NCBI RefSeq assembly: GCF_026004075.1
Contig: NZ_BPIK01000001.1
Location: 407,501-471,500, forward strand
Direction: 5' to 3'
Source: Meiothermus sp.
GTDB taxonomy: Bacteria > Deinococcota > Deinococci > Deinococcales > Thermaceae
Length of the DNA stretch: 64,000 bases
In this document: positions 3,800-55,350 of the stretch, in pieces
How positions within the stretch are numbered: the stretch's first letter is position 1
Layout: each line of letters begins with the position of its first letter
The notes under the pieces: generated by a model
The model's database searches: none
What the model saw: only the letters and a program-made list of their open reading frames with translations
Told to the model about the DNA's origin: nothing
Translations under genes and position numbers: made by a program

Positions 3800-4324
3800 A
3801 TGCTGGGCAAGTTAATCAAAAAACTGCGGGCGCTTCACCGGGGCCCTGCGCTGCCCGCACCATCGCCTGAACAAACCATCCAAGCCCACCGCATCTGGCT
3901 GTACCTGAACCAGGCCAGCCTTTCGCGTCCCCGGCTCACCCCGCCCGTGCCCCTTTCGGCCCGTACGGCCCTCGAGCTTTTCCTGCAGTGGCAGGGCCGG
4001 AAGCCCGTAGCGCTGCTGGAGGTCGGGTTCATCCGCCTGAAGGATCGCAAAGCCCTGACGCTCTGCCACCCCGGCCCCCTGAAGCCGGGCCGGAGCCTGC
4101 ACCTGCAATACGACGGCCTCGAGCTGGCCGCCCGCCTGGGCTACGGCGAGGCGCTGGCCCCCTACGTGCGCACCGCCGAGGGTCGGCTGTACTACGAGCA
4201 GCCCTTCGTCTTCGAGGCCGAGCTGGCCGCGGTGGCAGTGCCGCTCAAACCCCGGCCCCAAACCCTGCAGGGCCGGGCCCAACCCCTGGGCGAACCTACA
4301 GTCAGCAGGCGCTTCAGGCCGTAA
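3800..4324 (+). CDS. hypothetical protein, 174 aa
   Basis: I do not recognise this protein. It is soluble, basic at the N-terminus (LGKLIKKLRALHRG) and has no signal peptide, membrane segment or catalytic motif that I can identify. Its middle part (residues 50-130) looks like alternating beta strands, and the C-terminal tail is proline- and arginine-rich. A TATACT hexamer ends seven bases before the ATG, so the gene probably has its own promoter and a leaderless mRNA. It lies between the YraN-family gene and a UbiD decarboxylase gene, which begins 11 bases after its stop, so the decarboxylase may be co-transcribed. Confidence 0.6.
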   Translation: MLGKLIKKLRALHRGPALPAPSPEQTIQAHRIWLYLNQASLSRPRLTPPVPLSARTALELFLQWQGRKPVALLEVGFIRLKDRKALTLCHPGPLKPGRSLHLQYDGLELAARLGYGEALAPYVRTAEGRLYYEQPFVFEAELAAVAVPLKPRPQTLQGRAQPLGEPTVSRRFRP

Positions 4325-4334
4325 TCTGGACTGG

Positions 4335-39024: not shown

Positions 39025-42000
39025 TCAGTTCACCTGTACCCGGTACACGAAATACCCACCCTGACCGGGCAGCAAGGCCGGGGCGCTGCCGCCACCAGGC
39101 TGTGGGGCGGTGGGTAGGGGGCAGAGCGCGGCCAGGTTCAGGCTGAGGCTGCTGGTGCTGCCCAGGTCGGGCCGTACCACCGCACCACCTGGACAGACCA
39201 GCTCCACCTCGCCGGTGCCGCCGTAGGCGTTCTGTACCAGGGTGCTGAAGAAGGGGATGGGGTCGTAGAGCACCACGTTAAAGATGGGCTGGCTGCCGAT
39301 GTTCTGGTACTGGATGCGGTACTCCAGCACCTCGCCGGGGCGGCCCTGGGCGCTGGCGGCGAAAGCGGTGTTCTGGCTCACGTTGCGTACCTGCTTTTCC
39401 AGCCGCAGCTCCCCACCCCGTATAACAGTGGTGGTATCGGTCAGGCCCCGGGTTTCCTGGACGGCAGGGTTGTTGCCCCAGGCCAGGCCGGCGCTGAGGC
39501 TGGCGATATCCACCTGGCCGGCGCTCACCCCTGCGGGCACCAGTACCTGCACCTCGAGGGCACAGGCCGCCAGGCTGCCGTCCGGCTCCCGCGGCCAGCC
39601 AGAACCCACGCTAAAGCTCTGCGGCAGCCCCTGGAAGCCCTCGCCAGCGTCGTCGAAGTCGCCGTCGCAGTTCACATCGCGGCGGAGCTGGTAGCCGAAC
39701 TGCGGGGTGTTGGCCAGGGCCAGACCAACCGTGCCCAGGGTGCCGGGCTTGAACTGGTGCAGGTAGCGCCCCACCCCGGGGCTGGTGGCCTGGCCCGACT
39801 GGTCGGGCCGGAAGAGCGAGTTGCGCACCACCCCAAAGTTGTGGGTAAGAATCGAGCCGGCCAGGCTGCTGGCCGAACCCAGGCTGACCACGGCGCCTGT
39901 GGAGGTGGGGCCTGTGGCATCGGCCCAGCTTCCCACCAGGGTGGCGGTGCTCCCGTTGTTCCAGCCGGTGGCCGGGCGCAGGGGGTGGGTAAGACTGACG
40001 CTGCCCCAGCCCGCGGGTACATACAGGGAATAAAACCCGCTGCCGTCGGTGCTGGCGCTGCGACTGGAAACGCCATCGCTGGCCGTGACCGTTGCACCGC
40101 CCACGCCGCGCTCCTGGCCGTCCTGCAGGGCGTTGTTGGCCGAGCCGCCGCCCTCGCCATCGTCGTAGAAGACCCGGCCCTCTACCTGTGCGCCGTGGAA
40201 GAGGCCGAAGTCCTGGTTCAGCAGGTTGCTGGCGGCCACGGTGATGGCCCGGCTTCCACCGGTTGGGCTAATAAAAAGCCAGCCAGCGGGGGGGGTTGGG
40301 GTGGTGTCGGCGGTGCTGTTGTTGTTGTCCAGCACCAGGCTGTAGCTGCCGGGGGCCACCCCGCTAAAGCTGTAGGCGCCGGTTCCGGGGCTCACGGTCT
40401 GGACGGCCAGAACCGTGCTGCCCAGCACCAGCTTGACGTAGACCGTCGTCCCGCTGCTCCAGTCCTCGCTGTTCCTGGCCCCGTTGGGCTCCTGGTCGTG
40501 GTAGACCTGGCCGCTCACGTTGACGCCTATCACGTTCAGCGTTGCGCTGGCCGGGCTCTGGTTGCTGCCGTGGTTGGTCTGGAGGGCGCCAGCGGCCAGG
40601 GTGTTGGTGTAGCTGCCCGGTGTGCTGGCGGTGACGCTCGCGCTTACAGTGCAGCTCCCGTTGGCCGGTATCTGGGCCCCGGCGGCCAGGGTTACGCTGC
40701 TGTTACCGGGGGTGGCGCTCACGCTGCCGCCGGTGCAGGTGGTGCTGGCGTTGGCCGGGCTGGCTACCACCACCCCAGCGGGCAGGTTATCCACCAGGGC
40801 CGCGCTCAGGGTGGCGGGGGTGGGGTTGGGGTTGGTAAGGGTGATGCTGAGGGTGCTGGTGCCGCCCGTAGGGATGCTGGCCGGGGAGAAGGCTTTGCTA
40901 AGGGAAGGCGGGCTGGAAACCTGGCTATTGGCCGAGACCTCGGCCGTCTGGCTGAAGCTGGTGCCCAGGGTCTGGCTGTTGTAGTTGATCTGGGCGGTGT
41001 TGATGATGGTTTGCCCGCCGGCGCTGGGCAGCACCTGTACCCGGAAGCGTACGCTGGCACCCTGACTCGGCAGGATGAGCCCGCCGCTCGAGGCGTTGGC
41101 CCCGGTGCCCAGGCGGAAAACCACCCGGTTGTTGGCGCTATCAAACTCGGCGATGTCGTCGCCGGCGGCATCGGTAAAGGTGCCGGTGGGGGCACCGACG
41201 GCGTTGGTGAGCACCTGCAAACTCCCCGGCACGTACTGGGTGCCGGCAGGGATGGGGTCGCGCACGACCACATTGGTGGCCCCATCCCCCCCAGTGTTGG
41301 AAAAACTCAGGGTGTACTCGAGGATATCGCCCGGCAGCAGGTTTCCCCCGTTGATGTCCTGTCCGGTTTTCGTGAAGGTAGTAGTAAGGTCGGGCACGAA
41401 CACGTTGACGGCGAAGCTCAGCACCCCTGGTAGGTAAGCGTCCCCGGTGCTAACAAAACTTACGGTGGCAGAGGTTTGGTTGTTGCCGAGCAGCCCTGTG
41501 CTCTGAGTCCGATCCAGGTCGAAGCCGAGCTGGTCAATGTAGTTGGGGTTTTTCCCGCTAGCGTGAACACCCAGATCGCTGATGGTGGAGTTGAAGAAGT
41601 TGGTTGCAGGATTGTTTGCATCGGAGACATCCGCTCCATTCAAACGCAAACGGTCGCCCGTAATACCCCGGTCGCCCTCGTAAGCCAGAGCACCCAGCCG
41701 TGTGGTCACTGTGCCGATGGCAGGGGTCAAAAAACCGGAAACGGTTATATTGACGGTAGTGGTACCGCTGATGTTTGCAAACCCGTCAAAGACATTTAGG
41801 TGGCGTAGAGGCTCGCTACTGTGTTGGTAAACCACCACCAGACCCCATCCGGCATAGCGGTCGGAGTTGTTGGGGGAGCCCTGGACGTTGGCTACCCAGT
41901 AGGTGCCTGCACCGCCAGCTTGTACGAGTGCGGTCACCTCCACGAACCCTTGGTAGCGTACTCTATTTGGCGCCACGGTGAAGGAGTCGGTCTGGCTGGC

Positions 42001-42402
42001 GGTAAGGGTGGTATAAGTGGGAAGGGCTGGGGTGCGGAAGCGCACGGTGTTGGGGCTAGGTAGGCTGGGTGCTTCGGCGCCCCAGTAAAGGCCCGCCCAG
42101 AGTATGTTTGCCCCGCTGGGCAGCGTTAGATTGGCGCTGGAGGAGTTGAAGGTGCTGGGGTCGCTGTCGGCGTCCACGTAAATCATGGTGAAGTTGTTGT
42201 TGTAAAGCGATCCAGATCCATTTCGTGTGTTGACGCACTGGCTGCCGTTGGTACCGCTGGTGGAGCAGGTCATCAGGGTGTTGCCGATGAGCAGGATGTC
42301 GCCCTGGGTGTTGGTGCTGTAGCGGCTGGTAAAGTTACGCACCACCTGGGCCTGGGCCAGGCTCAGTGAAAGCATCAGGAAAAGGAGCAAAGTGCGTTTC
42401 AT
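39025..42402 (-). CDS. large secreted DUF11-type surface protein, 1125 aa
   Basis: The protein has a signal peptide (KRTLLLFLMLSLSLAQAQ). An N-terminal beta-rich domain (about 20-330; contains ILWAGLYWGAEAP, typical of adhesin-like proteins of this kind) is followed by DUF11-like beta-sandwich domains (about 340-470, 490-620), two SdrD/Cna-B-like domains (VSGQVYHDQEPNGARN and VEGRVFYDDGEGGG starts, about 625-850), and a last DUF11-like domain (about 1000-1125; LRLEKQVRNVSQNTAF). It has no membrane anchor. It is the last gene of the operon; its ATG overlaps the stop of the barrel protein gene (ATGA) and has GGAGG upstream. Probably an outer-surface structural protein; function unknown. Confidence 0.8.
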   Translation of the reverse strand: MKRTLLLFLMLSLSLAQAQVVRNFTSRYSTNTQGDILLIGNTLMTCSTSGTNGSQCVNTRNGSGSLYNNNFTMIYVDADSDPSTFNSSSANLTLPSGANILWAGLYWGAEAPSLPSPNTVRFRTPALPTYTTLTASQTDSFTVAPNRVRYQGFVEVTALVQAGGAGTYWVANVQGSPNNSDRYAGWGLVVVYQHSSEPLRHLNVFDGFANISGTTTVNITVSGFLTPAIGTVTTRLGALAYEGDRGITGDRLRLNGADVSDANNPATNFFNSTISDLGVHASGKNPNYIDQLGFDLDRTQSTGLLGNNQTSATVSFVSTGDAYLPGVLSFAVNVFVPDLTTTFTKTGQDINGGNLLPGDILEYTLSFSNTGGDGATNVVVRDPIPAGTQYVPGSLQVLTNAVGAPTGTFTDAAGDDIAEFDSANNRVVFRLGTGANASSGGLILPSQGASVRFRVQVLPSAGGQTIINTAQINYNSQTLGTSFSQTAEVSANSQVSSPPSLSKAFSPASIPTGGTSTLSITLTNPNPTPATLSAALVDNLPAGVVVASPANASTTCTGGSVSATPGNSSVTLAAGAQIPANGSCTVSASVTASTPGSYTNTLAAGALQTNHGSNQSPASATLNVIGVNVSGQVYHDQEPNGARNSEDWSSGTTVYVKLVLGSTVLAVQTVSPGTGAYSFSGVAPGSYSLVLDNNNSTADTTPTPPAGWLFISPTGGSRAITVAASNLLNQDFGLFHGAQVEGRVFYDDGEGGGSANNALQDGQERGVGGATVTASDGVSSRSASTDGSGFYSLYVPAGWGSVSLTHPLRPATGWNNGSTATLVGSWADATGPTSTGAVVSLGSASSLAGSILTHNFGVVRNSLFRPDQSGQATSPGVGRYLHQFKPGTLGTVGLALANTPQFGYQLRRDVNCDGDFDDAGEGFQGLPQSFSVGSGWPREPDGSLAACALEVQVLVPAGVSAGQVDIASLSAGLAWGNNPAVQETRGLTDTTTVIRGGELRLEKQVRNVSQNTAFAASAQGRPGEVLEYRIQYQNIGSQPIFNVVLYDPIPFFSTLVQNAYGGTGEVELVCPGGAVVRPDLGSTSSLSLNLAALCPLPTAPQPGGGSAPALLPGQGGYFVYRVQVN

Positions 42403-45400
42403 CGGCTACCTCCCAGGAAGTCGAGGCGCAGGTAGAAGCCGGGGGCGGTGTCGGGGGTGAGGCCGGTGAAGCCGCCGAAGGTGTAGCCCGCGTTGAGCCA
42501 CAGGCCCTCTACGACCCGGAAGCTGGCCTCGAGCGAGAAAGCAGTAGCGCTGGTCTGGGTGCCCGGCTGGAACTGGTAGTAGAGAGCGGCCCCCAGGCCC
42601 AGCCAGTCGGTGAAGTAGTGGTTGCCGCCCAGGCCGAGCTGGTAGGTGTGGCCGGCGGGGTCGTCGAGCTTGAGGCGGTAGGCGCTGCTGGGGCGGAGCT
42701 GGAGGCTTGGGCTGGGGTGGTAGCTGGCGGCCAGGGCCCCCTCGAGGACAAGCTCACCCACGTTGCTCAGGCGGTGGTAGGTGAGCAGCGAGGCCTCGCG
42801 CCCGCGCAGGGCGTAGGCCAGGGTAAAGCGGCCCTCCGGGGTGGGTACCACCTGGTAGCTGGCATCCAGCGAGAGGGTCTGCTGCTCGTCGAGCTGCCCG
42901 CTGGCCCCGGCCCGCAACACCACCTTGGGCTGCCCGGCGCTCCAGGCGGTCTCGCCCCCCAGGGTGGCGGTGAAGCCCTGGGCCTGGTAGCGCAAGGCCA
43001 GGCCAAAGGCACTCTGGTCGGCGCCGGTGGCAAGGCTGCGCTCGTAGCCGGCGCTGGCGTTCAGGCTCCAGTTCTCGGACAGGGGGAGCGGGGCTTCCAG
43101 GCCAAAGCGGGCCCGGTTGCCCTCGCCCGCCGCGCCCGGCAGTTGGTAGGCCAGCGAGAGGTTGGCCCCGGCCAGTTTTTGCTTGAGGCCCACCACGCCG
43201 CTGAAGCCCAGGCCCCAGGTCTGCACCAGGTCGGCCTCGGCGGTGAGGTTGGCATCGAAGGCGTAGCTGCTGCGGAGGCGGGTGGAGGCGCTCTGGCTCA
43301 GGCTGAAGGGCTGGGCGTGGGTCAGCTCGGTGTTGAGCGGGCCGCTCCTGAAGCCCAGCCGCCCCAGGCCGGCCCAGGCCGCTTCCTCCCAGGTGTAGCC
43401 CAGCCCACCCCCCACCGAGAAGCTGGGGGAGAGGCGGCGGGTGTAGAGCAGGCCGGTGCGGTTGTTGTTGTCGGTCTGGTGCTCGAGGCTGAGGCGGTCG
43501 GCCTCGCTCAGGCTGTAGGCCACCTGGGCCTGGCCCTGCAGCCTGCCTTCGTAGGCCAGGTTGGCGTTCGACTCGAGGGGGCCGTTTTTGCCAGAGACCT
43601 CGAGGCCGTAGCGCTCGGCGCTGCCCCGGCTGTAGCTCACTTTTACGCCAAAACCGGGTAGCTGGTAGGCGGCCTCGGCCCCGTAGCGCCAGCCCTGGGT
43701 GGGCAGGTAGGCCGCCCCCAGGCCAAGGCTAAAGTCGCCGGCTTTCCAGCGAACCCCGGCCCCGTAACCCAGTGCGCGGTGGCCGCCCTGGGGGGCGTAG
43801 GTGACCTCGAGCAGAACCGGCTGGAAGTCGGGGTCGCTGGGCCAGAGCGGACGGCTCAGGGTGAGGAAGCCGGTATCGGCGTCCAGCACGTAGTCTTTGA
43901 GGCGCTCGAGGCGGCTCTGGCTGGAACCTATCCAGAGCACCACCTGCTCGCTGCCGGGCTCGGCCGGGCTGGACAGCCGGTAGTAGCGGGTGCCATCGGG
44001 TACGATGCGCTCGCTGCGGCTGCCGGCGGGCAGATACCCCACGAAGCCCTGCAGGGCCAGCTCGCCACCCGGTGCACCGGCGGAGCCCGTCCCGAGAGGG
44101 GATTGTCCGCCCGGTGCACTGGCGGAGCCAGTCCCGAGAGGGGATCGTCCGCGGGTTTCCAGGCGCAGAGCGGTGCCCTGGGGCAGCCCGTCCAGGCCAA
44201 ACACCCCCAGCTTGTCGGCATAGTAGCCCAGGCTGAAGGCCTCCTGGTCGTAGCGCAGAGCAAAAGGCTCGTCCGAGCGCAGGGGCAGGCTGGCCTCCTG
44301 GCCGCTGCCGGTGAGGGGGAAGCGCCCGGTGGGGTCGGGCTGGTCGCGCAGGCCGGTTTGCAGCCGGGGCTGGCCCGCCTCAAAGCGCAGCGAGCCGTCC
44401 AGCGCGCCTTGCAGGAGGCCTGGGCCCAGGGGGCTTTCCAGATAGCCCCGGCCCAGTCCGAACACCTCAAGGCTATCCCCAAGGCGCACCCCCAGGCTCC
44501 CCTGAAGCTGCCACAGGGTGTTCTGGCGGCCCAGCACGAAGAACTCGGCCTGTTCTTGCAGCTCCCCGGTCGCCAGCCGCAGGCGCAGGGTGGTGGGGGT
44601 GGCGGTGGGCTTCAGGCGCAGCCGGGCCACCCCGTCCTTTAGCAGCACCTGGTACCCCGAGAGCAGCGGGAAGGCGTCCTCCTCCAGGGGCTCCTGGGAG
44701 GCTTCCACGTTGAGGGGGCCGAAGCCCGAGGCCAGGCCCAGCGCGTCCACGGCCCGCACCTCCAGCTCCAGCGGGGTGCGGCCATCGGCCAGCAGGCGCA
44801 GGGGGCGCACCTCCAGCCGCACGGGGCTACCGGCCAGGAAGACCTCTACCCGATCCGAGCCCAGAGGGGTTTGTACCTCGATCAGGTTGCGGCCCGGCTG
44901 AAGCGGCAGGCCGTAGTACTCCAGGCGCTGGAGGCCGAGGGCGCTGTCGTAGGTGGCCTGGCCCAGGAACTTAGAGTCTATGGGGGTTCCGTTCACGCTC
45001 AGGCGGGTCTCGAGGCCGTTGGGGGTTTGCAGCACCACCCGGGCTTTATCGCTGCGGAACACGCTGCCGGGCAGGGGCTCCTGGATGAAGCCGTCGCGGG
45101 TTTTAACCACGATGGGCTGGGCTTTTTCCAGGTCGGCCAGGCGCTGCTGGCCCTGCAGGTAGACCTCCCGGTCGCCTACCTGCGCGGTCAGGGTGGCTTC
45201 GGGTATGGGGCCCAGGGCCTCGCGGTGGCGGAGCTGGTAGGTGAGCTGGCCCTGGCGCTGGTAGGGCAGCTCGAAGTAGAGGCGGCCCTTCTCGTCCTGG
45301 CGGGGGTCGGGGATGGGGCGGCCGTCCAGCCGGGCCGAACCGGGCTCATAGGCGCTCTGGGCGGGGGGCTGGTGGGTGAGCAGCAGGCGCTCGAAGGGGG

Positions 45401-48044
45401 CGCTGCCCTCCACCTCAAAGTCCAGGGTGACGGTGGAAAGCCGCCGGGGCTCGAGGATGGGCAGGGCCAGCAGGGTGGCCCTGGCCGGGAGGGAGGCCGG
45501 GGTGCTGCCCACAAAGGCCGTGACCTGGTTGTCGAGCGGGCCAACCCGTTCGGCCCGGGCCTCCAGCTCCAGCTCGCGCACCTCGCCGGGCTGTAGGGTA
45601 AATTCCAGGCTTTCCGGCAGGGTCATCCGCAGGCCCTCGGCGGGCGACTCCTGCAGGCGCAGGCTGAGCGGGTGATCGGTGGGGTTGCCGAGCCGGATGG
45701 TGAAGCGAGCCTGGCCGCCCACCAGCGCCCGGCCCGGCTCGACGGTTTTCTCGAGCTGCACCAGCACCCGCTGGAGGGTGTCGGGCGCGCTGGGGTTGCC
45801 GCCGTTGGAGGAAAGTTGCGCCAGGAACGGGCCCTCGGCCGCCGGGCCAAAGCGCACCCGGGCGGTGTAGGAGTGGGTGGCGCTGGCCCCGGGGGCCAGT
45901 TCGCCGCTAAAGACCGGGGTCTGCGCCACCTCCAGCCACTCGGGGTGGCTGTCGCGCAGCTCGTAGTTTAGGGGGGCCTGGCCGGCGTTGCGCACCACCA
46001 GGCGCACCTCCACTTCCTCCCCCGGCACCACCCGGCGCTTGTCCTGCGTGCGCGAGAGCTCGGCTACCGGGCGCAGCACCCGCACCTCGGCCTGGGCTTC
46101 GCGGAGGGGTTGATTGCTTTCGCTGAGCAGGCGGGCGGTATTGACCACCACCGCAGGGGCCTCGGCGGTTACGCGGGCGCGCACCTCGAGCACGCGTTCG
46201 GCCCCGGCTGGAAGCTCGAGCACCTCGTCGAGGTTGGGGCCTTGCAGTCCGCTGGGCAGGCTGTCCTGGAGGCGCACCCGGCCCGCCTCGTCGCCGGTGT
46301 TCTGCACCCGCAGGCGGTACACCACCGTACCGCCCACCGGGGCCGTGGGCGATAGGGCCTCCTTCTGCAGGGTGAAGGTGGCCGGCTGGATGATTCTCAG
46401 TTGGGCGCTGGTTTTCTGCCCCCAGGGGCCCAGGGTGGCGCCAACCTGGGGCTCGCTCTTGCACAGGGCTTTTGCCCGCACCTGCAGCACGGCCTCCCGG
46501 CCCTGGGCGATGGGGGCCACCAGGCGGGGGGCCTCGAGGGCTTCCAGGCAGGGGGGCAGTTCAAGCTCGAGGTCGGCGGGCAGCAGGCGCGGGAAGGCGG
46601 TGCGGGCCCGGGCGGTTAGAAGGGTTTCTTCCCCTACGCGTAGGGTGGTGGGGGTTGCTTCCAGGCTCAGCCGAACCTCCGGATAAACCCGGAAGCGCAC
46701 CTTCTGGGCCTGGCCGCCCTCCAGGGTGACGGCCTGGGGCCCCTCGATCCGGGCCCCGTCCAGTTGGGGCGCGAGGGGGTAGGTGCCCGGCGCCAGGCTC
46801 AGGCGGGCCCGGCCCTGCTCCAGCACCACGGGCTGGCCGTTCACCGCCAGCGGCAGGTCGAAGGGCTGCTCGTCTTCTGGCAGCACCAGTACCGCCTCGA
46901 TTTCCAGGGTGGACGCGGGCGCGGCGGCGGGAATTGTCGCAGCCGGGGCTGGTTTTTCCACCACATAGCGCACCAGGCCACCTGCACAGCCGAAGCGGGC
47001 GGTCTGAGCATCCAGGGCCTCCCCGCCTTCCACCTCCATCCGCACCAGGCGGTAGCCTTCGGGCAGGGCCGGCAGCCGAAGGATGCGAATTTTGTCGCCC
47101 TCCACGGCAGGGGTGATATCGAGCGGCTGGCCGCTGCTGTCCTGCACCAAGGCCTGCACCGGGCGTGGGGGCACCACCCGGAAGGCCGTTGGCTCCACCT
47201 CCATACAGGCGTCCACCCGGAAGCCGATGGTGTTGGAGTACTGGGTGGCGGCCGTGGGCTGGCGGAAGCCGAAGGTAATCAGGCCGGACTGTTGAATCTC
47301 GTAGTAGGCCCAGCTCCGGTCGCCGGAGACGGGGCGGCGCTCCTGGGTTCCGTCGGGCAGGCGCACCCGGCCCTCCATCTCCTTCTCGCCGTCCTCGTCG
47401 TAGAAGCCCACGCGCAAGGGCAGCACCTCGGGGCTCACCTTGAGCACGAAGGGCTCGAGCCAGTCCTGCCCCCGGATGGTGGCCACCGAAAGCGGGTTCA
47501 CTGCCTGAAAAGGCCGCACGTCGTAGAGCTGTAGGGTGGGGTCAATGAGCAGCTCGGCGGCCTCCGGCACGCTGGTCTGGATGCGGTAGCGGAAGGCGTT
47601 TTTGCCCAGCCCGGCCAGGCGGCTCTTGAGCAGGTATACCCCCGGCTCCACCGGTCCCCGGAAGAACAGCACCCAGCGGTGCGGCTCCACGCTAAAGTTC
47701 TCCTGGGCCAGCACTTTTCCATCCCGAATCAGCACAAACTCGGCCAGTATCTGACCTTGTCCTTTGTCATAGCGCTCGTCACCCAGCTCTTCCTGGCCCT
47801 TCAAGGCCCGGCGGTAGTCGGTGGGGTCGAAGCCAGGGGAGTAGATCTGAAGGTTCAGGATGGTGGGTTTGCTGACCACCACGCTGGCCCGCAGCTCCTG
47901 GATTTCCCAGCCCAGCGCGTCCCCCGGCGCGACGCCCTTGAGGTCGGTGCGGGCCTGGCCCAGCGCCACCGAAGCAAACAGAAAGAAAAGCCAGAAAAGC
48001 CCGCGATGGATGCCCGCTAGGGTGTCTTGGGTTCTTCCAAACAT
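42399..48044 (-). CDS. giant DUF11 protein with C-terminal outer-membrane beta-barrel, 1881 aa
   Basis: After a signal peptide (GLFWLFFLFASVALGQA) come several Ig-like domains, three DUF11-like domains at about 551-655, 656-735 and 758-850 (TLQKEALSPTAPVGGTVVYR, VVPGEEVEVRLVVRNAGQAP), further beta domains to about 1170, and from about 1177 a chain of amphipathic beta strands with alternating Tyr/Leu/Gly (for example FSLGLGAAYLP, FSVGGGLGYTW, FYLRLDFLGGSR at the end) that reads as an outer-membrane barrel of about 700 residues. It may anchor or export the other proteins of the operon. The start overlaps the stop of the preceding gene (TGATG) with GGAGGT seven bases upstream. Confidence 0.78.
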   Translation of the reverse strand: MFGRTQDTLAGIHRGLFWLFFLFASVALGQARTDLKGVAPGDALGWEIQELRASVVVSKPTILNLQIYSPGFDPTDYRRALKGQEELGDERYDKGQGQILAEFVLIRDGKVLAQENFSVEPHRWVLFFRGPVEPGVYLLKSRLAGLGKNAFRYRIQTSVPEAAELLIDPTLQLYDVRPFQAVNPLSVATIRGQDWLEPFVLKVSPEVLPLRVGFYDEDGEKEMEGRVRLPDGTQERRPVSGDRSWAYYEIQQSGLITFGFRQPTAATQYSNTIGFRVDACMEVEPTAFRVVPPRPVQALVQDSSGQPLDITPAVEGDKIRILRLPALPEGYRLVRMEVEGGEALDAQTARFGCAGGLVRYVVEKPAPAATIPAAAPASTLEIEAVLVLPEDEQPFDLPLAVNGQPVVLEQGRARLSLAPGTYPLAPQLDGARIEGPQAVTLEGGQAQKVRFRVYPEVRLSLEATPTTLRVGEETLLTARARTAFPRLLPADLELELPPCLEALEAPRLVAPIAQGREAVLQVRAKALCKSEPQVGATLGPWGQKTSAQLRIIQPATFTLQKEALSPTAPVGGTVVYRLRVQNTGDEAGRVRLQDSLPSGLQGPNLDEVLELPAGAERVLEVRARVTAEAPAVVVNTARLLSESNQPLREAQAEVRVLRPVAELSRTQDKRRVVPGEEVEVRLVVRNAGQAPLNYELRDSHPEWLEVAQTPVFSGELAPGASATHSYTARVRFGPAAEGPFLAQLSSNGGNPSAPDTLQRVLVQLEKTVEPGRALVGGQARFTIRLGNPTDHPLSLRLQESPAEGLRMTLPESLEFTLQPGEVRELELEARAERVGPLDNQVTAFVGSTPASLPARATLLALPILEPRRLSTVTLDFEVEGSAPFERLLLTHQPPAQSAYEPGSARLDGRPIPDPRQDEKGRLYFELPYQRQGQLTYQLRHREALGPIPEATLTAQVGDREVYLQGQQRLADLEKAQPIVVKTRDGFIQEPLPGSVFRSDKARVVLQTPNGLETRLSVNGTPIDSKFLGQATYDSALGLQRLEYYGLPLQPGRNLIEVQTPLGSDRVEVFLAGSPVRLEVRPLRLLADGRTPLELEVRAVDALGLASGFGPLNVEASQEPLEEDAFPLLSGYQVLLKDGVARLRLKPTATPTTLRLRLATGELQEQAEFFVLGRQNTLWQLQGSLGVRLGDSLEVFGLGRGYLESPLGPGLLQGALDGSLRFEAGQPRLQTGLRDQPDPTGRFPLTGSGQEASLPLRSDEPFALRYDQEAFSLGYYADKLGVFGLDGLPQGTALRLETRGRSPLGTGSASAPGGQSPLGTGSAGAPGGELALQGFVGYLPAGSRSERIVPDGTRYYRLSSPAEPGSEQVVLWIGSSQSRLERLKDYVLDADTGFLTLSRPLWPSDPDFQPVLLEVTYAPQGGHRALGYGAGVRWKAGDFSLGLGAAYLPTQGWRYGAEAAYQLPGFGVKVSYSRGSAERYGLEVSGKNGPLESNANLAYEGRLQGQAQVAYSLSEADRLSLEHQTDNNNRTGLLYTRRLSPSFSVGGGLGYTWEEAAWAGLGRLGFRSGPLNTELTHAQPFSLSQSASTRLRSSYAFDANLTAEADLVQTWGLGFSGVVGLKQKLAGANLSLAYQLPGAAGEGNRARFGLEAPLPLSENWSLNASAGYERSLATGADQSAFGLALRYQAQGFTATLGGETAWSAGQPKVVLRAGASGQLDEQQTLSLDASYQVVPTPEGRFTLAYALRGREASLLTYHRLSNVGELVLEGALAASYHPSPSLQLRPSSAYRLKLDDPAGHTYQLGLGGNHYFTDWLGLGAALYYQFQPGTQTSATAFSLEASFRVVEGLWLNAGYTFGGFTGLTPDTAPGFYLRLDFLGGSR
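44068..44151. repeat. tandem 2 x 42-bp repeat within the barrel-protein gene
   Basis: Two adjacent 42-bp units (44068-44109 and 44110-44151) differ at few positions and encode two copies of a 14-residue Gly/Pro-rich loop (SPLGTGSA.APGG). Unit number may vary between strains. Confidence 0.85.
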
Positions 48045-50785
48045 CACGGATACCTCCAGCGCACCTGCGGATCGGTCAGGTGAGGGGCTAAGGGGCCGTC
48101 CAGGTCGTAGGTCAGGGTCTGCCGGCCCTGGAATTGGGCAAACTGGAAGACCCGCTCACCGCCGCCGGGGAGGGGGTCGGTGAGGGTCAGGTCGTTGAGG
48201 GACTCGGCGGATTCCAGTACCAGTACCACCCGGAAGCCCTCCGGCAGCGGAAGCAGTTGCTTGCTGAGCCGCAGGGGGCCAAACTCCAGCACGGTCTGGC
48301 GCTGGGCGCGGGCCAGGCCTGCGGGGCGCTCGAGGGGGAAGTCGCTCACGGTCAGGCCCTCCACCCGCACCCGGTGGCGGTAGCCCGCTCCCTGGGCCTC
48401 GGGGTGGGGGAGGGGCGGGAAGGGGGCCGAGGCCGGCTCGAGCATCACCTCCCACACCCCGCCCGTCAGGTTGCGGAAGCTGTAGCGGCCTTCGGCATCG
48501 GTCAGGGCCTGCCAGCCGTTGCCGAGGACGACCCGGGCCCCCGGCAGCGGCACATCCAGGCCGGCGGTGTACAGGCCGTCGCGGTTGGTATCCAGAAAGA
48601 CCCGGCCCAAGAGCAGATGGGGTGCAGCCAGCGCACCCGGCTCGACCTGTACCGCAGCCGAGGCCACCGCGCTGGCTACCGCAGTTCCGCCTGCACTATC
48701 CCCGGTGGCCTGCACGGTGTTTTTCAGCTCACTGCCGGCCCCCGCCAGCACCCGCATGCGGTAGCGAACCTCCACCCGAGCCCCCGGGGCCAGGGTAAGG
48801 TTTTCCCAGACCAGGCGGCCGTTTTGCCGAACGGGTTCTGCGGGGCTGGCGCTACCGGCCTGGTATTGCAGGTGGGGGTCGGGGGTGTCCTCGAGGCGCA
48901 CCGTGAGGGGAACCTGCCCCACATTGACCGCGGTCAGGGTGTAGGTGAGCAGGTCACCCACCCTCACCTTTCTGGGCTCCACCCGCTTTTCCAGAAGCAG
49001 GGCCGCCGCCTGCACCCGCAAGGTGACGCTGTTGGATACCAGGGGGTTGCCAATTTCGGGGGAGCGCAGGCTAAAGCGGTTCACGATGGTCGCATTGTCG
49101 GGCGCAGCGGCGCTGACCCGCACCCGCAGGCGCAGGGTGAGGGTGCTCTGGGCCGCCAGTGTCAGGTTCCAGTGCACGGTGCGGGTTCCGGGGTCGAAGA
49201 CCCCCCCATCGGAGGCCGAGAGGAACTCGAGGTGGCTGTCCAGCACATCTTCAACCTGCACGTTGGGTACTGCGAAAGGCAAGGGATTCTCGACCTGCAG
49301 GCTATATTCCACCCCCTGCCCAGGACTCACGGCGGGCCCGCTTGAGCTGCTTTTGAACAGGACAATCTGAGAGAGATCCCAGACCCGCGCGACGCGATCC
49401 ACGGTGGGGTCGGTGTTGCCGGTGCTTCCGGAGCGGGCCAGCAGCCTGAACTCAAAAGCAGGTGTACCGGCGGGCAGGGCCGATATACAGGCCTGGAAGT
49501 CCAGGGTGTTTCCCGGAGCCAGCGTGATGGGGGTGGACAGGCCGCCTCCGCTCATGGTGCGGTAGGTCAGGTTCACGCCGCTGGGCAGCCCAAGGGCTTC
49601 CAGGGTGTAGGTGTCGGGGGCGTTGCCGCTGTTGAGCAGGGTATGGCGAAAGCAGTAGGGCTGCCCGGCCAGCGCCTCGGCCTCCTGCCGATCGGCGGTG
49701 CCTGCGGCCTGTGGGTTGCCGATGGGCCCCAGGGCGTGGGCGTACTCGGCGGCAACTTGCAACGAAACCTGGGTCTGGGCGCTGCTCTCGCTGGAGGTGG
49801 CACGGGCCAGGTTAATCCGCTCGCCCGGTGCGGCATCGGCTTCCACCTGCATACGGAAGCTAAAGACCGCCTCCTCCCCCACCTCGAGGCCGTCCAGCAC
49901 CAGCCGGAGGCCGCGCACGCTGGCGGGCTCGAGGCTGCTCCAGTTGGCCCCGTCGAAGTACTCCAGGCGGCCTTTGGCTGCACTGGCAGAGCCAGCCAGA
50001 TACACCAGGCCACTCAGCTCGGGTATATCCAGCCGATCCTCTACGTAGATTGACCCGGCGGCCCGCGCACTGCCCAGGTTCTGTACCCGTAGGGTGAAAC
50101 CCACGGCCTGGTTTTGGCGAACCGGGTTCGCATCCACCGACTTAACCAGGCTCAAAGCCGGCCCGGTGCCGATGCGAATCGAGCTAAAGTTGTTCTCATC
50201 GCGGGTACCGTCGGGGCAGGCGGCCACGGGGCTAATCAGCAGCTCATCACTGGCCGAAGGCGGGGTTTGCACGGCCATAATCAGGCGAGCTTCCTGTCCC
50301 ATATCCAGACGGAGGCTGTTCACCTCCGGTTCACCGGGGTCAAGCTGGGCGTTGGCGTTGGCATCCAGATAAAAACGTACGGCGCTGGGCGTCCAGGAAG
50401 CCCCGTTCTGTAGCCAGCTTAGGCTGAACGAAAAACTTTGGTTGCCAAGGTTTTGCAGGCGATAAGCAAAATAGGCGGTTCCGCTGGCCGGGGTGGTGGT
50501 GCGCTGGCCGGGGCTGACAAGGCTCCCATTGGGGGTCATGGCCGGAACGCACACTGCCTGTACCAGGGTTTCTACTTCGTTGGATAAATACACCTGACCG
50601 TTGACAATCGCCGCAGCCTGGTTGCGAATTACCGTTCCGGCGGGCGCGGCCCAGGCTATACTCATCCAAAACAGCACCCATACCAAGCCGACCCATAGGC
50701 TGGCCCTTCCAAAAAACACACAGTTTCGGACGGTATCCAACCCCAGGGTGTAGTGGGCGGCTTGTGCGGATGCAGGTATTTGCAT
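48044..50785 (-). CDS. secreted DUF11-type protein, 913 aa
   Basis: A rather long N-terminus leads into a signal peptide (LWVGLVWVLFWMSIAWAAPAG), so the annotated start may be a little too far upstream. The mature part has a series of DUF11-like domains (LSLVKSVDANPVRQNQAVGF near 225, VLFKSSSSGPAVSPGQGVEY near 490, LLLEKRVEPRKVRVGDLLTY near 610) and one SdrD/Cna-B-like domain with LGRVFLDTNRDGLYTAGLDV near 745, a form that may bind calcium. It is predicted to be exported without an anchor. Its stop TGA overlaps the start of the barrel protein gene, so expression is coupled. Confidence 0.78.
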   Translation of the reverse strand: MQIPASAQAAHYTLGLDTVRNCVFFGRASLWVGLVWVLFWMSIAWAAPAGTVIRNQAAAIVNGQVYLSNEVETLVQAVCVPAMTPNGSLVSPGQRTTTPASGTAYFAYRLQNLGNQSFSFSLSWLQNGASWTPSAVRFYLDANANAQLDPGEPEVNSLRLDMGQEARLIMAVQTPPSASDELLISPVAACPDGTRDENNFSSIRIGTGPALSLVKSVDANPVRQNQAVGFTLRVQNLGSARAAGSIYVEDRLDIPELSGLVYLAGSASAAKGRLEYFDGANWSSLEPASVRGLRLVLDGLEVGEEAVFSFRMQVEADAAPGERINLARATSSESSAQTQVSLQVAAEYAHALGPIGNPQAAGTADRQEAEALAGQPYCFRHTLLNSGNAPDTYTLEALGLPSGVNLTYRTMSGGGLSTPITLAPGNTLDFQACISALPAGTPAFEFRLLARSGSTGNTDPTVDRVARVWDLSQIVLFKSSSSGPAVSPGQGVEYSLQVENPLPFAVPNVQVEDVLDSHLEFLSASDGGVFDPGTRTVHWNLTLAAQSTLTLRLRVRVSAAAPDNATIVNRFSLRSPEIGNPLVSNSVTLRVQAAALLLEKRVEPRKVRVGDLLTYTLTAVNVGQVPLTVRLEDTPDPHLQYQAGSASPAEPVRQNGRLVWENLTLAPGARVEVRYRMRVLAGAGSELKNTVQATGDSAGGTAVASAVASAAVQVEPGALAAPHLLLGRVFLDTNRDGLYTAGLDVPLPGARVVLGNGWQALTDAEGRYSFRNLTGGVWEVMLEPASAPFPPLPHPEAQGAGYRHRVRVEGLTVSDFPLERPAGLARAQRQTVLEFGPLRLSKQLLPLPEGFRVVLVLESAESLNDLTLTDPLPGGGERVFQFAQFQGRQTLTYDLDGPLAPHLTDPQVRWRYP

Positions 50786-50846: not shown

Positions 50847-53540
50847 TTACTGCACCTGTACGCGGAAGCTGAGGGTGATGGTGGCCCCTGGTGGCATGGT
50901 GTCGGCGCTGGTAATGGTGTTGTCGCCGTTGGTATCTACGGCCACGTAGATCGACTGACCCGCCGACAGCGTAGTTGGAGCGGTTGCGCTCCAGGTGCTA
51001 CCGTCGGTCGAGTAGAGCACGGTGCCGCTGAAGCCGCTAATGCTGGCACTCACGCTTACGAAGCTGGTGTAGCTGGGCAGCGGATCGCTCACCACCACCT
51101 GGGCCAGGTTGCCCGTACCGATGTTCTGGGCGACCACGGTGTAGAGAATCTGATCGCCGGGCAGGGCGACCGCCGCATTAGCATCCCGGACGGTGGCGCT
51201 GCTGCCCACGTAGCTCACCGCGCTCTTGGTCAGGCGCAGGTCGCCGCCCACCACGGTGGTGGTTTCTGAGGCCGTGGCGGTGGCCGTAGTGCTGGCAACG
51301 GTGCAGCTTGCGGTCAGGGTATTGACGTCAGTTCGTCCGATGGGCTCGCCTGCGGGGGTCAGGATTCGTACATACACGGTCTGGCTACCGCCGTTGGCGG
51401 CTACCGCGACGCCACTCAGGCTGGGTGCCCAGGTGCTGCCATCCAGCGAGTACTGGTAGGTCCAGCCGAAGCTCCCGCCGCTACCGGAGATGCTGCAGGT
51501 CGCACCGCTGTTGGAGTTGTTGGTCAGGGTGTGGGTGTACTGGATGGTGCCGGGGCTGGTGACGGTTCCACTGCGGTCGGGCGTCAGGCTCACCTGGGCT
51601 ACCAGGTTCACATCCACTGCGCCGGCAATGGTGTCGCTTACGCCGGGCAGGGTGGTGCTGGTAATGGTCAACTGCACGTTGTCGCTGCTACCGGCGGTCG
51701 CATCCACTGGAGCTGCGCCGGCGGGCACCTGTACGGCTGCGATGAAGCATGCGGTGGTCCCCGCATTTACCAGGCTGCTGTTGCTGACCGGAGCCGGGGT
51801 AGGGGTGTCCATCACGCCGTCGCAGTTCGTATCGGGATAAAAGACCGCCGTCCAACCCGCAGGCAGGCTGGCCGTGAGGTTATAGGTATCCGGGTTGGCG
51901 CCCGTGTTGCTGACCTCGAAGGGGAAGTAGGCCACGCCACCAGGGTTGACCGCAGGGTTGTAACCGGGGCGGGTGTCGTTGGCGGGGTCGGGACCTTCGC
52001 CGCCGGAAGCCCCGTTGGTGTTATGGGCGACATCCAGGCTGTAGCCCGAGACCACCGTGGTCACGGCCAGGGTGGTTGCATCCACTCCGTCCAGCAGGGC
52101 GCCCACGCTACCGCTGGGGTTGTTCACCGAGGTTGCAGTCAGGGTGACGCTGCCGCCCGTGGTCTGGCTGGCCGGAATGGCGCAGCGCACCACCACGGTG
52201 TAGGTCGCACCGGCCGCCAGCGGGCCCACCGAGCCGGAAAGCGGGGTTACACCGTCGGACTGCAGGATGGTGCAGGCGCCCAGGGTGCTGCTGCCCAGGC
52301 TGAGGGTGAAGCTATCGGGGGCATTGCCGGTGTTTTGCAGGGTGGAGTTGAAGGTCACTGTGCTGCCGGAGTTGGCGCTTGCGATGGTCTGGGTATCGGC
52401 CCCGTCTATAGCGCTGGCCCCGGTGCCGCCGATGGCCACGCTGTAGCGGCTGGCGGCGGTGTTGTTGGTGGTGTTGGAGGTGGTGGTCTGGTTGGCAGTT
52501 CCGTCGTTATAGGCAACGGTGGCGGTGTTGGGATACGCGGTGCCAGCTGGGGCACTGGCGGGTACGGTGGCCTGGAAGCTGAAGGTGTACGAGGCGGTCT
52601 GGGGGAAGAAGGCCCCGCTGCCGCTAATGAACATTCCTACCCGGTTGGAGCCGTTGCCCACGAAGGGGAAGGTGGGGGCGGTGGTGCTCCAGGCGGTGCC
52701 GCCGTCGGTGCTGTAGACGATCTGGACAGTGCCAGCCCCAGCTGTGCCGGTGGGGGCAGCGGGTACGCTCAGGCCGGTGGGGATGGTGTCGGAGATCAGG
52801 ATGCCGGTGCCGGTGAGGCCGCTCACGCTCACGCCGCTGGCGGCACTGCCGCCGGTGTTGGCGCCGGAGATGGTGTAGGTGATGGTGCTGCCGGGGGCGA
52901 CGGGGCCTGCCGGGCTGGCCGACTTGGTGGCGGTGAGGATAGCTGCGGTGGTGGCGACAGCGCGGGCCCAGTTGTTGGTGTCGGTGGTGCTGGGGCTGCC
53001 CGCCGAGGTGCCCTCCAGGTTTAGGTTGCCAAACTGGCCGCTGGTAGCCGAGGCGGGAATAGTGCCAGCCACAATCACGCAGGCGCTGGCGCCCGGGGTG
53101 CCCTGGCGGGTCAGGGTGACGCTGGTGATGGGGGTGGTTTCGCCTGAGTCGAGCGTACCGTTACAGTTGGCGTCCAGGTAGATGTTGGTTCCGCTCAGGT
53201 CGAAGCTGTCGCCCGCGTCTTGCGCCAGGGTCAGGTTGATGGTATCTGTGCCGTTACCAGTATTACTGACCGTGTAGCTAAAGTAAACCGGGGCGCCAGC
53301 CAGGGCGGTGCGGGTCTGACCTGGAGTGGTGGTACTGCCGTCGGGAGTGATGCTAAAGCTGTAAACCTGCTGTACTACCGTGATGACCTGGTTGGAGGTG
53401 GTAGTTCGGGGCTGGCCAGCGGAGTCGATGTAGCTGGCCGAGGCCTGGTTGGAGATGTTGGTGCCAGCAGGCGTCTGCTGGGCCAGGGCCAGGCCCAGCA
53501 GCATCAGCGCTGCAAGCACGATGGGGTAGATTCTCTTCAT
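50847..53540 (-). CDS. secreted DUF11-type protein, 897 aa
   Basis: The protein has a signal peptide (KRIYPIVLAALMLLGLALAQ). The mature chain is very rich in Thr, Ser, Ala, Gly and Asn, low in charge, and made of repeated beta-sandwich modules with DUF11 features (ILTATKSASPAGPVAPGSTI near 195, NTGNAPDSFTLSLGSS near 410, LRLTKSAVSYVGSSATVRDA near 770). It contains Asp-rich loops such as YLDANCNGTLDSGE and DTNGDNTITSADT that may bind calcium. AGGAGG seven bases before the ATG fixes the start. It begins 15 bases after the stop of the small first gene. Confidence 0.78.
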   Translation of the reverse strand: MKRIYPIVLAALMLLGLALAQQTPAGTNISNQASASYIDSAGQPRTTTSNQVITVVQQVYSFSITPDGSTTTPGQTRTALAGAPVYFSYTVSNTGNGTDTINLTLAQDAGDSFDLSGTNIYLDANCNGTLDSGETTPITSVTLTRQGTPGASACVIVAGTIPASATSGQFGNLNLEGTSAGSPSTTDTNNWARAVATTAAILTATKSASPAGPVAPGSTITYTISGANTGGSAASGVSVSGLTGTGILISDTIPTGLSVPAAPTGTAGAGTVQIVYSTDGGTAWSTTAPTFPFVGNGSNRVGMFISGSGAFFPQTASYTFSFQATVPASAPAGTAYPNTATVAYNDGTANQTTTSNTTNNTAASRYSVAIGGTGASAIDGADTQTIASANSGSTVTFNSTLQNTGNAPDSFTLSLGSSTLGACTILQSDGVTPLSGSVGPLAAGATYTVVVRCAIPASQTTGGSVTLTATSVNNPSGSVGALLDGVDATTLAVTTVVSGYSLDVAHNTNGASGGEGPDPANDTRPGYNPAVNPGGVAYFPFEVSNTGANPDTYNLTASLPAGWTAVFYPDTNCDGVMDTPTPAPVSNSSLVNAGTTACFIAAVQVPAGAAPVDATAGSSDNVQLTITSTTLPGVSDTIAGAVDVNLVAQVSLTPDRSGTVTSPGTIQYTHTLTNNSNSGATCSISGSGGSFGWTYQYSLDGSTWAPSLSGVAVAANGGSQTVYVRILTPAGEPIGRTDVNTLTASCTVASTTATATASETTTVVGGDLRLTKSAVSYVGSSATVRDANAAVALPGDQILYTVVAQNIGTGNLAQVVVSDPLPSYTSFVSVSASISGFSGTVLYSTDGSTWSATAPTTLSAGQSIYVAVDTNGDNTITSADTMPPGATITLSFRVQVQ

Positions 53541-53555
53541 GTATTTTCCTCCTAT

Positions 53556-54074
53556 TTATCGCACGACAACGCGAAGCGTAAGGGTAAGGGCTTGTTTAGG
53601 TTCCATCTGTGGTATTACCCAGCGGGCGTGGGTGTATTCTTCGGGCTTAACTTCTACTTCCTTCTCTACCTCCTTGCCGTTCTCCACAACTTTGAGCTTT
53701 CGCTTGAGGGGGGGGCGACCATAGCTTTTCCCTCCGTCAAAGCTAAACTCAGGAACAATCAGGGTATCTCCCAGGCGCAAAGGCAGGGCGCTTTGGGCCT
53801 GGTAGGTGGTGGTGGGGGGGATGGGTATCACCAGGGCTACCTGGCGGAGCGGGCTGGTGAGGGTGTTCAGGGCGGTGAGCTGATACTCGATAACCTGGCC
53901 CGGCTTTGCATCCAGAGCGGGCTCGAGCCGCTCGACGGTACGGTTTTGCTCCTGCACGCTCACGACCCGGAAGGCCTTAAGGTCGAGCCGTACATCGCTT
54001 GCGGCTTGCGCCAGCACCAGACCGACCAGACCTAGCAAGACTGCTCCTAATCGCCACCCGAAGTGTTGAATCAT
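53556..54074 (-). CDS. small exported DUF11-like protein, first gene of surface operon
   Basis: The 172-residue protein has a signal peptide (WRLGAVLLGLVGLVLAQA) and one DUF11-like domain (LDAKPGQVIEYQLTALNTLT, then VALVIPIPPTTTYQAQSALP). The C-terminal part is charged (RKLKVVENGKEVEKEVEVKP). The ATG at 54074 is chosen because GAGGAG lies seven bases before it; the frame is open further upstream, but that stretch is the structured leader. It is the first gene of the five-gene operon and may be an accessory or assembly factor. Confidence 0.75.
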   Translation of the reverse strand: MIQHFGWRLGAVLLGLVGLVLAQAASDVRLDLKAFRVVSVQEQNRTVERLEPALDAKPGQVIEYQLTALNTLTSPLRQVALVIPIPPTTTYQAQSALPLRLGDTLIVPEFSFDGGKSYGRPPLKRKLKVVENGKEVEKEVEVKPEEYTHARWVIPQMEPKQALTLTLRVVVR

Positions 54075-54195
54075 TCCTGTTCTCCTCAAAAAAAACGACG
54101 ACCGACCTATGAGCCGGTCGCGCCACTGGCTCACTCCAGCCCCTGGGCGCCCGTGTGGGGTACTGGAGATCAACGCCTCTCAGAGTTTGATTCTA
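54075..54195 (-). promoter_or_regulatory. leader with terminator/antiterminator hairpins, surface-protein operon
   Basis: Read on the minus strand: a first hairpin (CTCCAG/CTGGAG at 54163-54168 and 54134-54139, extended by CCCC/GGGG), then TGAGCC (54128-54133), which can pair with GGCTCA (54110-54115). The same GGCTCA bases lie in a terminator stem (CGACCGGCT at 54112-54120 with GGTCGGTCG at 54099-54107) followed by eight Ts (54088-54095) and then GAGGAG. The two pairings exclude each other, the pattern of an attenuator or riboswitch. I do not recognise a known ligand class. Confidence 0.65.
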
Positions 54196-54666: not shown

Positions 54667-55350
54667 TCATCTATTTTTTTCTTTGATAACCACACGATAC
54701 CCTTGTCCAAATACCGTTTCGATGTAACGGGGTGTTTTGGGGTCATCGCCCAGCTTGCGCCGCAGCAGCGCCACATAGCTATCAACCACCCGCTCATCTA
54801 CAGTGCTACCACGCTCGGCTCCCCAGACCCTTTGCAAGAGGCGCTCGCGGCTCCAGACCTCGCCGGGGTTCTGGGCCAAGGTTAGTAGCAGATCGAGCTC
54901 GGTTGGAGAGAGCTCGAGTAGTTTTTCGCCCTGGAAAACCTGACGGCGCTTGAGTACGATGCGCAAATCCTGAAGGGTGATTTCTTGTTCGGGTCGGCTG
55001 CGCCGTAGCAAGGCCCTAACCCGGGCCACCATCTCGCGCACGCTCATAGGCTTGGTCAGATAATCGTCGGCGCCGAGCTCGAGCGCACGTATGCGAATTT
55101 CTTCGGTGCCCTGGGCGCTTATAACCAGGATGGGCAGGCTCCAATCGGCCTCGCGCAGCTCGCGGATGACCTCGAGGCCCCCCAGGCCCGGCAAGCCCAG
55201 GTCAAGAATCATCAGGTCGGCTTGCGGCGCTATCTGCACTGCATCCAGCCCGTTGGTTGCCAGCAGGGCAGTGTAACCCTCGTGTTCCAGCGCAGTGATT
55301 ACCAGATGAGCTAGCTGTGGATCATCTTCAACAACCAATACACGTTCCAT
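54667..55350 (-). CDS. OmpR-family response regulator, orphan
   Basis: The 227-residue protein has a receiver domain (VLVVEDDPQLAHLV, phosphorylated Asp in LMILDLGLPGLGG, Lys in DYLTKPMSVREM) and a C-terminal winged helix of the OmpR/PhoB type (LSPTELDLLLTLAQNPGEVW, VDSYVALLRRKLGDD, GQGYRVV). It binds DNA after phosphorylation. No histidine kinase gene is next to it. It lies directly upstream of, and on the same strand as, the surface-protein operon, so regulation of that operon is a reasonable guess. Confidence 0.93.
   Translation of the reverse strand: MERVLVVEDDPQLAHLVITALEHEGYTALLATNGLDAVQIAPQADLMILDLGLPGLGGLEVIRELREADWSLPILVISAQGTEEIRIRALELGADDYLTKPMSVREMVARVRALLRRSRPEQEITLQDLRIVLKRRQVFQGEKLLELSPTELDLLLTLAQNPGEVWSRERLLQRVWGAERGSTVDERVVDSYVALLRRKLGDDPKTPRYIETVFGQGYRVVIKEKNR

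What the first reader, a model, noticed from the sequence alone, without database searches (positions are those of the whole stretch)
54088..54168. Terminator/antiterminator leader ahead of the 15 kb surface-protein operon
GGCTCA (54110-54115) can pair with TGAGCC upstream or take part in the terminator stem CGACCGGCT/GGTCGGTCG, which is followed by eight Ts and then the Shine-Dalgarno GAGGAG. A separate stable hairpin (CTCCAG/CTGGAG) precedes. The arrangement is that of a transcriptional attenuator or riboswitch. It matches no motif class I know.
Basis: partly seen in the sequence, partly recalled or inferred. Interest (0 to 1): 0.7.

Follow-up and report, generated by a model that had tools for sequence, protein, structure and literature searches.

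The report
Variant c-di-GMP riboswitch before surface-protein operon
The leader is a known kind of RNA switch (a variant of the c-di-GMP class II riboswitch) fused to a transcription terminator, and it most likely turns on a five-gene surface-protein operon in a heat-loving Thermaceae bacterium (probably Meiothermus) when a cyclic-dinucleotide signal is high.

Summary
Window 54189-54103 (-) matches Rfam RF03169, c-di-GMP-II-GAG riboswitch aptamer (64.9 bits, cut-off 40, E 1.2e-10 per 64 kb). The "separate stable hairpin" is the aptamer's P3. The terminator (54121-54098, then eight U) begins inside the aptamer, so its 5' arm is the aptamer's conserved core and P1 strand. Aptamer and terminator exclude each other: the layout of a ligand-ON switch. 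Behind it lie a 172-aa gene and four large surface-protein genes (15 kb). Three congeners keep aptamer plus terminator at the same operon; twelve genus orthologues lack the aptamer. The motif is therefore a new member of a known variant family. Among 103 related aptamers two core positions change together (U/A in 58, C/G in 44, one U/G). The own genome carries one variant and one canonical aptamer. The genus lacks diadenylate cyclase, 18 variant-bearing genomes lack SMODS CD-NTases, and 13 of 16 own GGDEF matches keep the guanine-selective N/D pair. c-di-GMP is the likeliest ligand, untested here; I recall no published ligand for this variant.

The parts
54103..54189 (-). c-di-GMP-II-GAG riboswitch aptamer (RF03169), full-length match to model positions 1-86
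   Evidence: cmscan 64.9 bits, gathering 40, E 1.2e-10, 1.1e-12 in 601 bases with alignment
54134..54168 (-).
   Evidence: RF03169 structure line; coordinates
54146..54150 (-). pseudoknot strand GCGCC (P3 loop side)
   Evidence: sequence; complementary to GGCGC 54124-54120; strongly conserved in the alignment of 103 aptamers
54120..54124 (-). pseudoknot strand GGCGC; its last two bases are also the first bases of the terminator stem
   Evidence: sequence
54153..54153 (-). variant position 1 (C; U in canonical class II), 'position 37' in remembered crystal numbering
   Evidence: co-varies with 54119 in 102 of 103 aptamers
54119..54119 (-). variant position 2 (G; A in canonical class II), 'position 69'; the first G of the 'GAG' signature (G69-A70..G73, my decoding of the family name)
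54098..54121 (-). intrinsic terminator stem-loop GCGACCGGCT-CATA-GGTCGGTCGT; 5' arm lies inside the aptamer (54121-54103 shared)
   Evidence: 10 pairs, about -15 kcal/mol; conserved in G010, G016, G008
54088..54095 (-). U8 tract of the terminator
   Evidence: sequence
54082..54087 (-). Shine-Dalgarno GAGGAG, directly after the U tract
   Evidence: sequence; identical in all four leaders
53556..54074 (-). first gene of the operon, 172 aa, N-terminus looks like a signal peptide, no Pfam match; orthologues in 37 of 50 genomes of the family
50847..53540 (-). 897-aa DUF11 protein
48044..50785 (-). 913-aa DUF11 protein
42399..48047 (-). 1882-aa DUF11 protein; a porin-like stretch at the C-terminal side scores just above Pfam's cut-off
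39025..42402 (-). 1125-aa DUF7933/DUF11/SdrD_B protein, last gene of the same-strand run

Best explanation
A single c-di-GMP-II-GAG riboswitch controls transcription of the five-gene DUF11 surface-protein operon on the minus strand. Without ligand, the 3' part of the aptamer (GCGACCGGCU, the pocket strand plus the P1 strand) pairs with the downstream GGTCGGTCGT and RNA polymerase stops at the U8 tract just before the Shine-Dalgarno. When the ligand, most likely c-di-GMP made by the cell's GGDEF enzymes, binds, P1, P2 and the pseudoknot lock that strand into the aptamer, the terminator cannot form and the operon is transcribed (genetic ON). Shown here: the aptamer match, the terminator, their physical overlap, their joint conservation in three relatives, and the downstream genes. 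Inferred: ligand identity, the ON direction, and transcription start upstream of 54189.
For: Aptamer: RF03169 64.9 bits against cut-off 40; the same RNA scores 53.0 on canonical RF01786, just below its cut-off of 53.5. Terminator 54121-54098 plus U8, shuffle fraction 0.0035. Overlap of 19 nt between aptamer and terminator. The leaders of the orthologous operon in G010, G016 and G008 hold aptamer plus terminator although the terminator loops and stems differ (CAUA, U8, U7, UAU loops). The pocket-strand mirror hairpin recurs elsewhere: 9 of 45 variant and 12 of 58 canonical aptamers have a helix against that strand at shuffle p <= 0.05, with terminator-type U tracts in the four leaders of this genus and in L126. 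Ligand: the own genome has 16 GGDEF-domain matches, of which the 13 with a legible motif (L132-L144) keep the Asp that marks GTP-selective cyclases. DAC (c-di-AMP synthase) is absent from all 18 genomes of the genus. SMODS CD-NTases are absent from 18 variant-bearing genomes.
Against: The variant differs from canonical class II aptamers at two covarying core positions, one of which names the family, so c-di-GMP may not be the ligand. No RNA-seq, Term-seq or binding data. The promoter is not identified: the sigma-70 scan finds none on the minus strand. P1 is short (3-4 inner pairs) compared with the terminator (-15.5 to -19.9 kcal/mol), so antitermination must rely on ligand and pseudoknot and on folding before the 3' arm is made.
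Confidence: 0.7

Rival explanations
1. Same riboswitch and same terminator-based ON mechanism, but the GAG variant senses another product (for example 3',3'-cAMP-GMP made by a promiscuous GGDEF enzyme, or an unknown dinucleotide), so that the window's operon and the canonical aptamer's subtilase gene answer to different signals in one cell.
For: Two core positions switch together from U/A to C/G in 44 of 103 aptamers with one U/G intermediate; variant and canonical aptamers coexist in the same genomes, including this one, and sit back to back between divergent genes in family f4, which suggests they are not interchangeable.
Against: No other cyclic-dinucleotide source found: no DAC in the genus, no SMODS CD-NTase, no GGDEF with a Ser-type (Hypr-like) specificity residue among the 13 legible ones. 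Other CD-NTase families were not searched. A C-G pair in place of U-A could hold the same guanine.
Confidence: 0.2
2. Plain attenuator: TGAGCC (54133-54128) pairs with GGCTCA (54115-54110) as antiterminator against the terminator, with no class II aptamer involved.
For: The helix exists, 7 bp in the window.
Against: It is 4 bp in G010 and G016, while the whole aptamer (P1, P2, P3, pseudoknot, core) is conserved and scores E 1e-10. TGAGCC lies in a stretch conserved for the aptamer itself in 103 sequences.
Confidence: 0.04
3. OFF switch, or a switch acting mainly on translation: the ligand-bound form lowers expression.
For: The SD follows the U tract immediately, so folding could also affect ribosome access. 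The canonical copy in this genome probably works on translation.
Against: The terminator uses the aptamer's own strand, so the bound aptamer and the terminator cannot coexist; GAGGAG lies outside both structures.
Confidence: 0.04
4. Decayed riboswitch: only a constitutive terminator or leader remains.
For: The outer P1 of the window copy has three non-pairs.
Against: Core and pseudoknot are intact; the terminator has changed in sequence while staying complementary to the core in four genomes.
Confidence: 0.02

Closest known systems
Rfam RF03169, c-di-GMP-II-GAG riboswitch aptamer (by memory from the variant-riboswitch surveys of Weinberg and colleagues, 2017; those papers are not in the library)
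   Same: full-length covariance-model match above cut-off, GAG signature, position in a leader ahead of exported-protein genes
   Different: nothing structural; the operon and the core-nested terminator are particulars of this member
Rfam RF01786, canonical c-di-GMP-II riboswitch (Lee et al. 2010; about 200 pM affinity, cited in PMC12564702)
   Same: fold, pseudoknot, most core bases; the same genome has a true member at G000:C2:510316-510401 (63.7 bits)
   Different: window copy scores 53.0, just under the cut-off of 53.5; C/G replace U/A at the two covarying core positions
Deinococcota c-di-GMP riboswitches in general (PMC9495176: class II typical of clostridia and Deinococcus; PMC12452182: c-di-GMP riboswitches enriched in Deinococcota)
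   Same: lineage and class
   Different: the passages read in those papers do not treat this operon or its terminator

Membership tests
c-di-GMP-II-GAG riboswitch (RF03169) | covariance-model score above the curated cut-off, full length | tested here: met
   64.9 vs 40 bits, model 1-86
c-di-GMP-II-GAG riboswitch (RF03169) | scores better than the sister families of clan CL00127 | tested here: met
   clan competition in cmscan keeps RF03169; RF01786 gives 53.0
c-di-GMP-II-GAG riboswitch (RF03169) | G-A-(CC)-G at the pocket positions (69, 70, 73; my decoding of the family name, numbering from memory) | tested here: met
   GCGACCG at 54121-54115
c-di-GMP-II-GAG riboswitch (RF03169) | pseudoknot between the P3 loop and the 3' strand | tested here: met
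   GCGCC 54150-54146 / GGCGC 54124-54120 complementary; conserved
c-di-GMP-II-GAG riboswitch (RF03169) | leader position with an expression platform | tested here: met
   terminator overlapping the aptamer, then SD and ATG
c-di-GMP-II-GAG riboswitch (RF03169) | binds its ligand | not testable with these tools
   needs in-line probing or ITC
canonical c-di-GMP-II riboswitch (RF01786) | score above 53.5 bits | tested here: not met
   53.0 bits
canonical c-di-GMP-II riboswitch (RF01786) | U / A at the two covarying core positions | tested here: not met
   C at 54153, G at 54119
intrinsic terminator | GC-rich stem followed by a U tract | tested here: met
   10 pairs, 6 G-C, U8

The most novel reading that the evidence does not exclude
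The GAG variant is a separate sensor: the paired change U/A to C/G in the pocket alters which cyclic dinucleotide is read, so this bacterium runs two class II aptamers with different ligands, one (variant) for the surface-protein operon and one (canonical) for a subtilase lipoprotein. The absence of DAC and SMODS enzymes would then point to a second GGDEF-derived messenger.
Probability: 0.2. Interest if true: 0.75.

Novelty: new member of a known kind. Interest (0 to 1): 0.35.

Why it matters
It explains the orphan motif with an already catalogued RNA family and gives a testable regulator for a five-gene DUF11 surface-protein operon of unknown function in Thermaceae. It also narrows the open ligand question for the GAG variant. 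In a lineage without diadenylate cyclase, and with no SMODS CD-NTase found, the ligand should be a GGDEF product, and the same cell supplies a canonical control aptamer for a side-by-side test.

Tried and rejected
CBASS-type cGAMP: no SMODS domain in 18 variant-bearing genomes (other CD-NTase families not searched). Hypr-type GGDEF: no Ser at the specificity residue among 13 legible GGDEFs; a first motif search missed most of them. Coding role of the open frame 54173-53556 that runs through the aptamer: the frame is shifted in G016 by one-base changes in the terminator region, so it is incidental. sigma-70 promoter scan gave nothing on the minus strand. The two papers that, from memory, define the GAG variant are not held. 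Five apparent exceptions in the covariation table were a regular-expression artefact (corrected). L118 (Gemmatimonadaceae) fits the DNA pattern but lacks the aptamer by eye and was dropped. A name check through the genome length of M. ruber could not be run.

Full report
WHAT WAS CHECKED. The sequence elements in the finding exist at the stated coordinates but on the minus strand. The finding's span (54088-54168) leaves out the 5' quarter of the element. With that included, Rfam recognises one RNA: RF03169, c-di-GMP-II-GAG riboswitch aptamer, window 54189-54103 (-), 64.9 bits against a gathering score of 40, E 1.2e-10 for the window. The alignment shows P1, P2, P3 and the conserved 3' strand GAGCCAGUGGCGCGACCG.

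THE SWITCH. The terminator stem GCGACCGGCU-CAUA-GGUCGGUCGU (54121-54098) is followed by U8 (54095-54088), then GAGGAG and, seven bases after it, the ATG at 54074. Its 5' arm is the aptamer's own pocket strand and P1 3' strand; 19 bases (54121-54103) belong to both. The bound aptamer and the terminator therefore cannot coexist, which predicts antitermination by ligand. The terminator hairpin is about -15 kcal/mol, and 0.35% of shuffles of its core are as stable.

CONSERVATION. The first gene of the operon (172 aa) has orthologues in 37 of 50 genomes of the family. Four genomes of the genus carry the aptamer ahead of it: G000 (own), G010, G016, G008. The leaders of the other twelve genus orthologues examined (L076-L081, L083-L088) have none, even at a permissive threshold. 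The four are compatible with one gain (one change on the protein tree, but the grouping is weakly supported, 55/77). In all four, the terminator pairs with the aptamer core although stem and loop sequence differ (CAUA, U8, U7 and UAU loops), and a U tract and GAGGAG follow. A mirror helix against the same strand is found at shuffle p <= 0.05 in 9 of 45 variant and 12 of 58 canonical aptamers, with terminator-like U tracts in the four genus leaders and L126.

VARIANT VERSUS CANONICAL. Aptamers from the genomes with hits plus named contigs, aligned, fall into two types. The base before GGGC and the base in GC[A/G]ACCG are U/A in 58, C/G in 44 and U/G in one (L097, Rubrobacteraceae) of 103 distinct sequences. 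On a tree built without these two columns each position changes 12-13 times and they change together, but only four independent contrasts sit on well-supported branches (nearly all in the same direction, sign test p 0.125), so the counts must not be read as 102 independent events. In the eight loci scanned, C/G types score best on RF03169 and U/A types on RF01786. From memory, these are positions 37 and 69 of the class II crystal structure, and 'GAG' reads as G69-A70-G73. I could not check this in a paper. The own genome has one of each type: the window copy, and a canonical copy at G000:C2:510316-510401 (63.7 bits on RF01786) ahead of an S8 subtilase lipoprotein.

LIGAND. c-di-AMP is unlikely: the DAC domain is absent from all 18 genomes of the genus while present in the other 43 genomes searched. 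SMODS-type CD-NTases are absent from 18 variant-bearing genomes. GGDEF is present in all 61 genomes, with 16 matches in the own genome. The 13 with a legible motif keep N..D at the guanine-contacting positions (N335/D344 in PleD, from memory), and none shows the Ser that marks cAMP-GMP-making Hypr enzymes (from memory); three degenerate or truncated matches were not scored. This leaves c-di-GMP as the likeliest ligand, without proof.

GENES CONTROLLED. The run 54074-39025 holds the 172-aa apparently exported protein and four large DUF11-type proteins of 897, 913, 1882 and 1125 aa; gaps of 15, 61, -4 and -4 bases fit one operon. Elsewhere variant aptamers precede other apparently exported proteins and DUF4388-like proteins.

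HOST. The genome G000 (3.25 Mb in two contigs, no DAC) belongs to a Thermaceae genus. The name could not be confirmed in the library.

SIDE OBSERVATION. In the canonical copy ahead of the subtilase, the only in-frame SD-led start is a GUG inside the aptamer. In 11 genomes the frame from that GUG runs without a stop through the rest of the aptamer and a 29-40 codon linker into the lipoprotein signal peptide. A UGA lies just upstream in frame in all 11, and in four closely related genomes no ATG, GTG or TTG lies between the aptamer and the lipobox cysteine. The nine genus genomes with a close subtilase orthologue (58% identity or more) are the same nine that have this aptamer. If translation starts there, ligand folding would hide the start site directly (an OFF switch). 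This needs a toeprint or a mapped N-terminus.

VERDICT. New member of a known variant family; c-di-GMP is the favoured but untested ligand.

Noticed in passing
G000:C2:510316-510401 (-), L003 1501-1586, L070 about 4317-4402: Canonical c-di-GMP-II aptamer whose own 5' side (GGAGGUGAU) and an internal GUG look like the Shine-Dalgarno and start codon of the subtilase lipoprotein gene; frame open in 11 of 11 genomes, no other in-frame start before the lipobox in four.
   Followed up: partly
G039:C1:142566-142999, G043:C2:47329-47716, G047:C2:232069-232455, G051:C51:9155-9517, G056:C9:2017-2322, G058:C91:5392-5717, G060:C137:38387-38771: Variant and canonical aptamers back to back, each facing outward to a divergent, apparently exported-protein gene, in seven genomes of one family.
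   Followed up: partly
G000-G017 (own genus): The whole genus lacks the DAC domain (c-di-AMP synthase) that all 43 other genomes searched have.
   Followed up: no
L097 (Rubrobacteraceae), L108/L114/L124 (Actinomycetota), L110 (Clostridiales): GAG-type aptamers outside Deinococcota, found by sequence pattern only; L097 has a U/G intermediate at the two covarying positions.
   Followed up: partly
L003 2013-3083 (+): Response regulator with HD-GYP-like domain (c-di-GMP phosphodiesterase type) diverging from the aptamer-controlled subtilase gene, with a GGDEF gene about 3 kb away.
   Followed up: no
window 54667-55350 (-): OmpR-type response regulator gene on the same strand upstream of the leader, separated by about 480 bp.
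   Followed up: no
window about 54240-54205 (-), L085, L087: TGT...CACA-like (Crp/Fnr-type) motif upstream of the operon leader in several genus members, e.g. ATGTGCATATATCACA in L085 and L087; seen by eye only.
   Followed up: no
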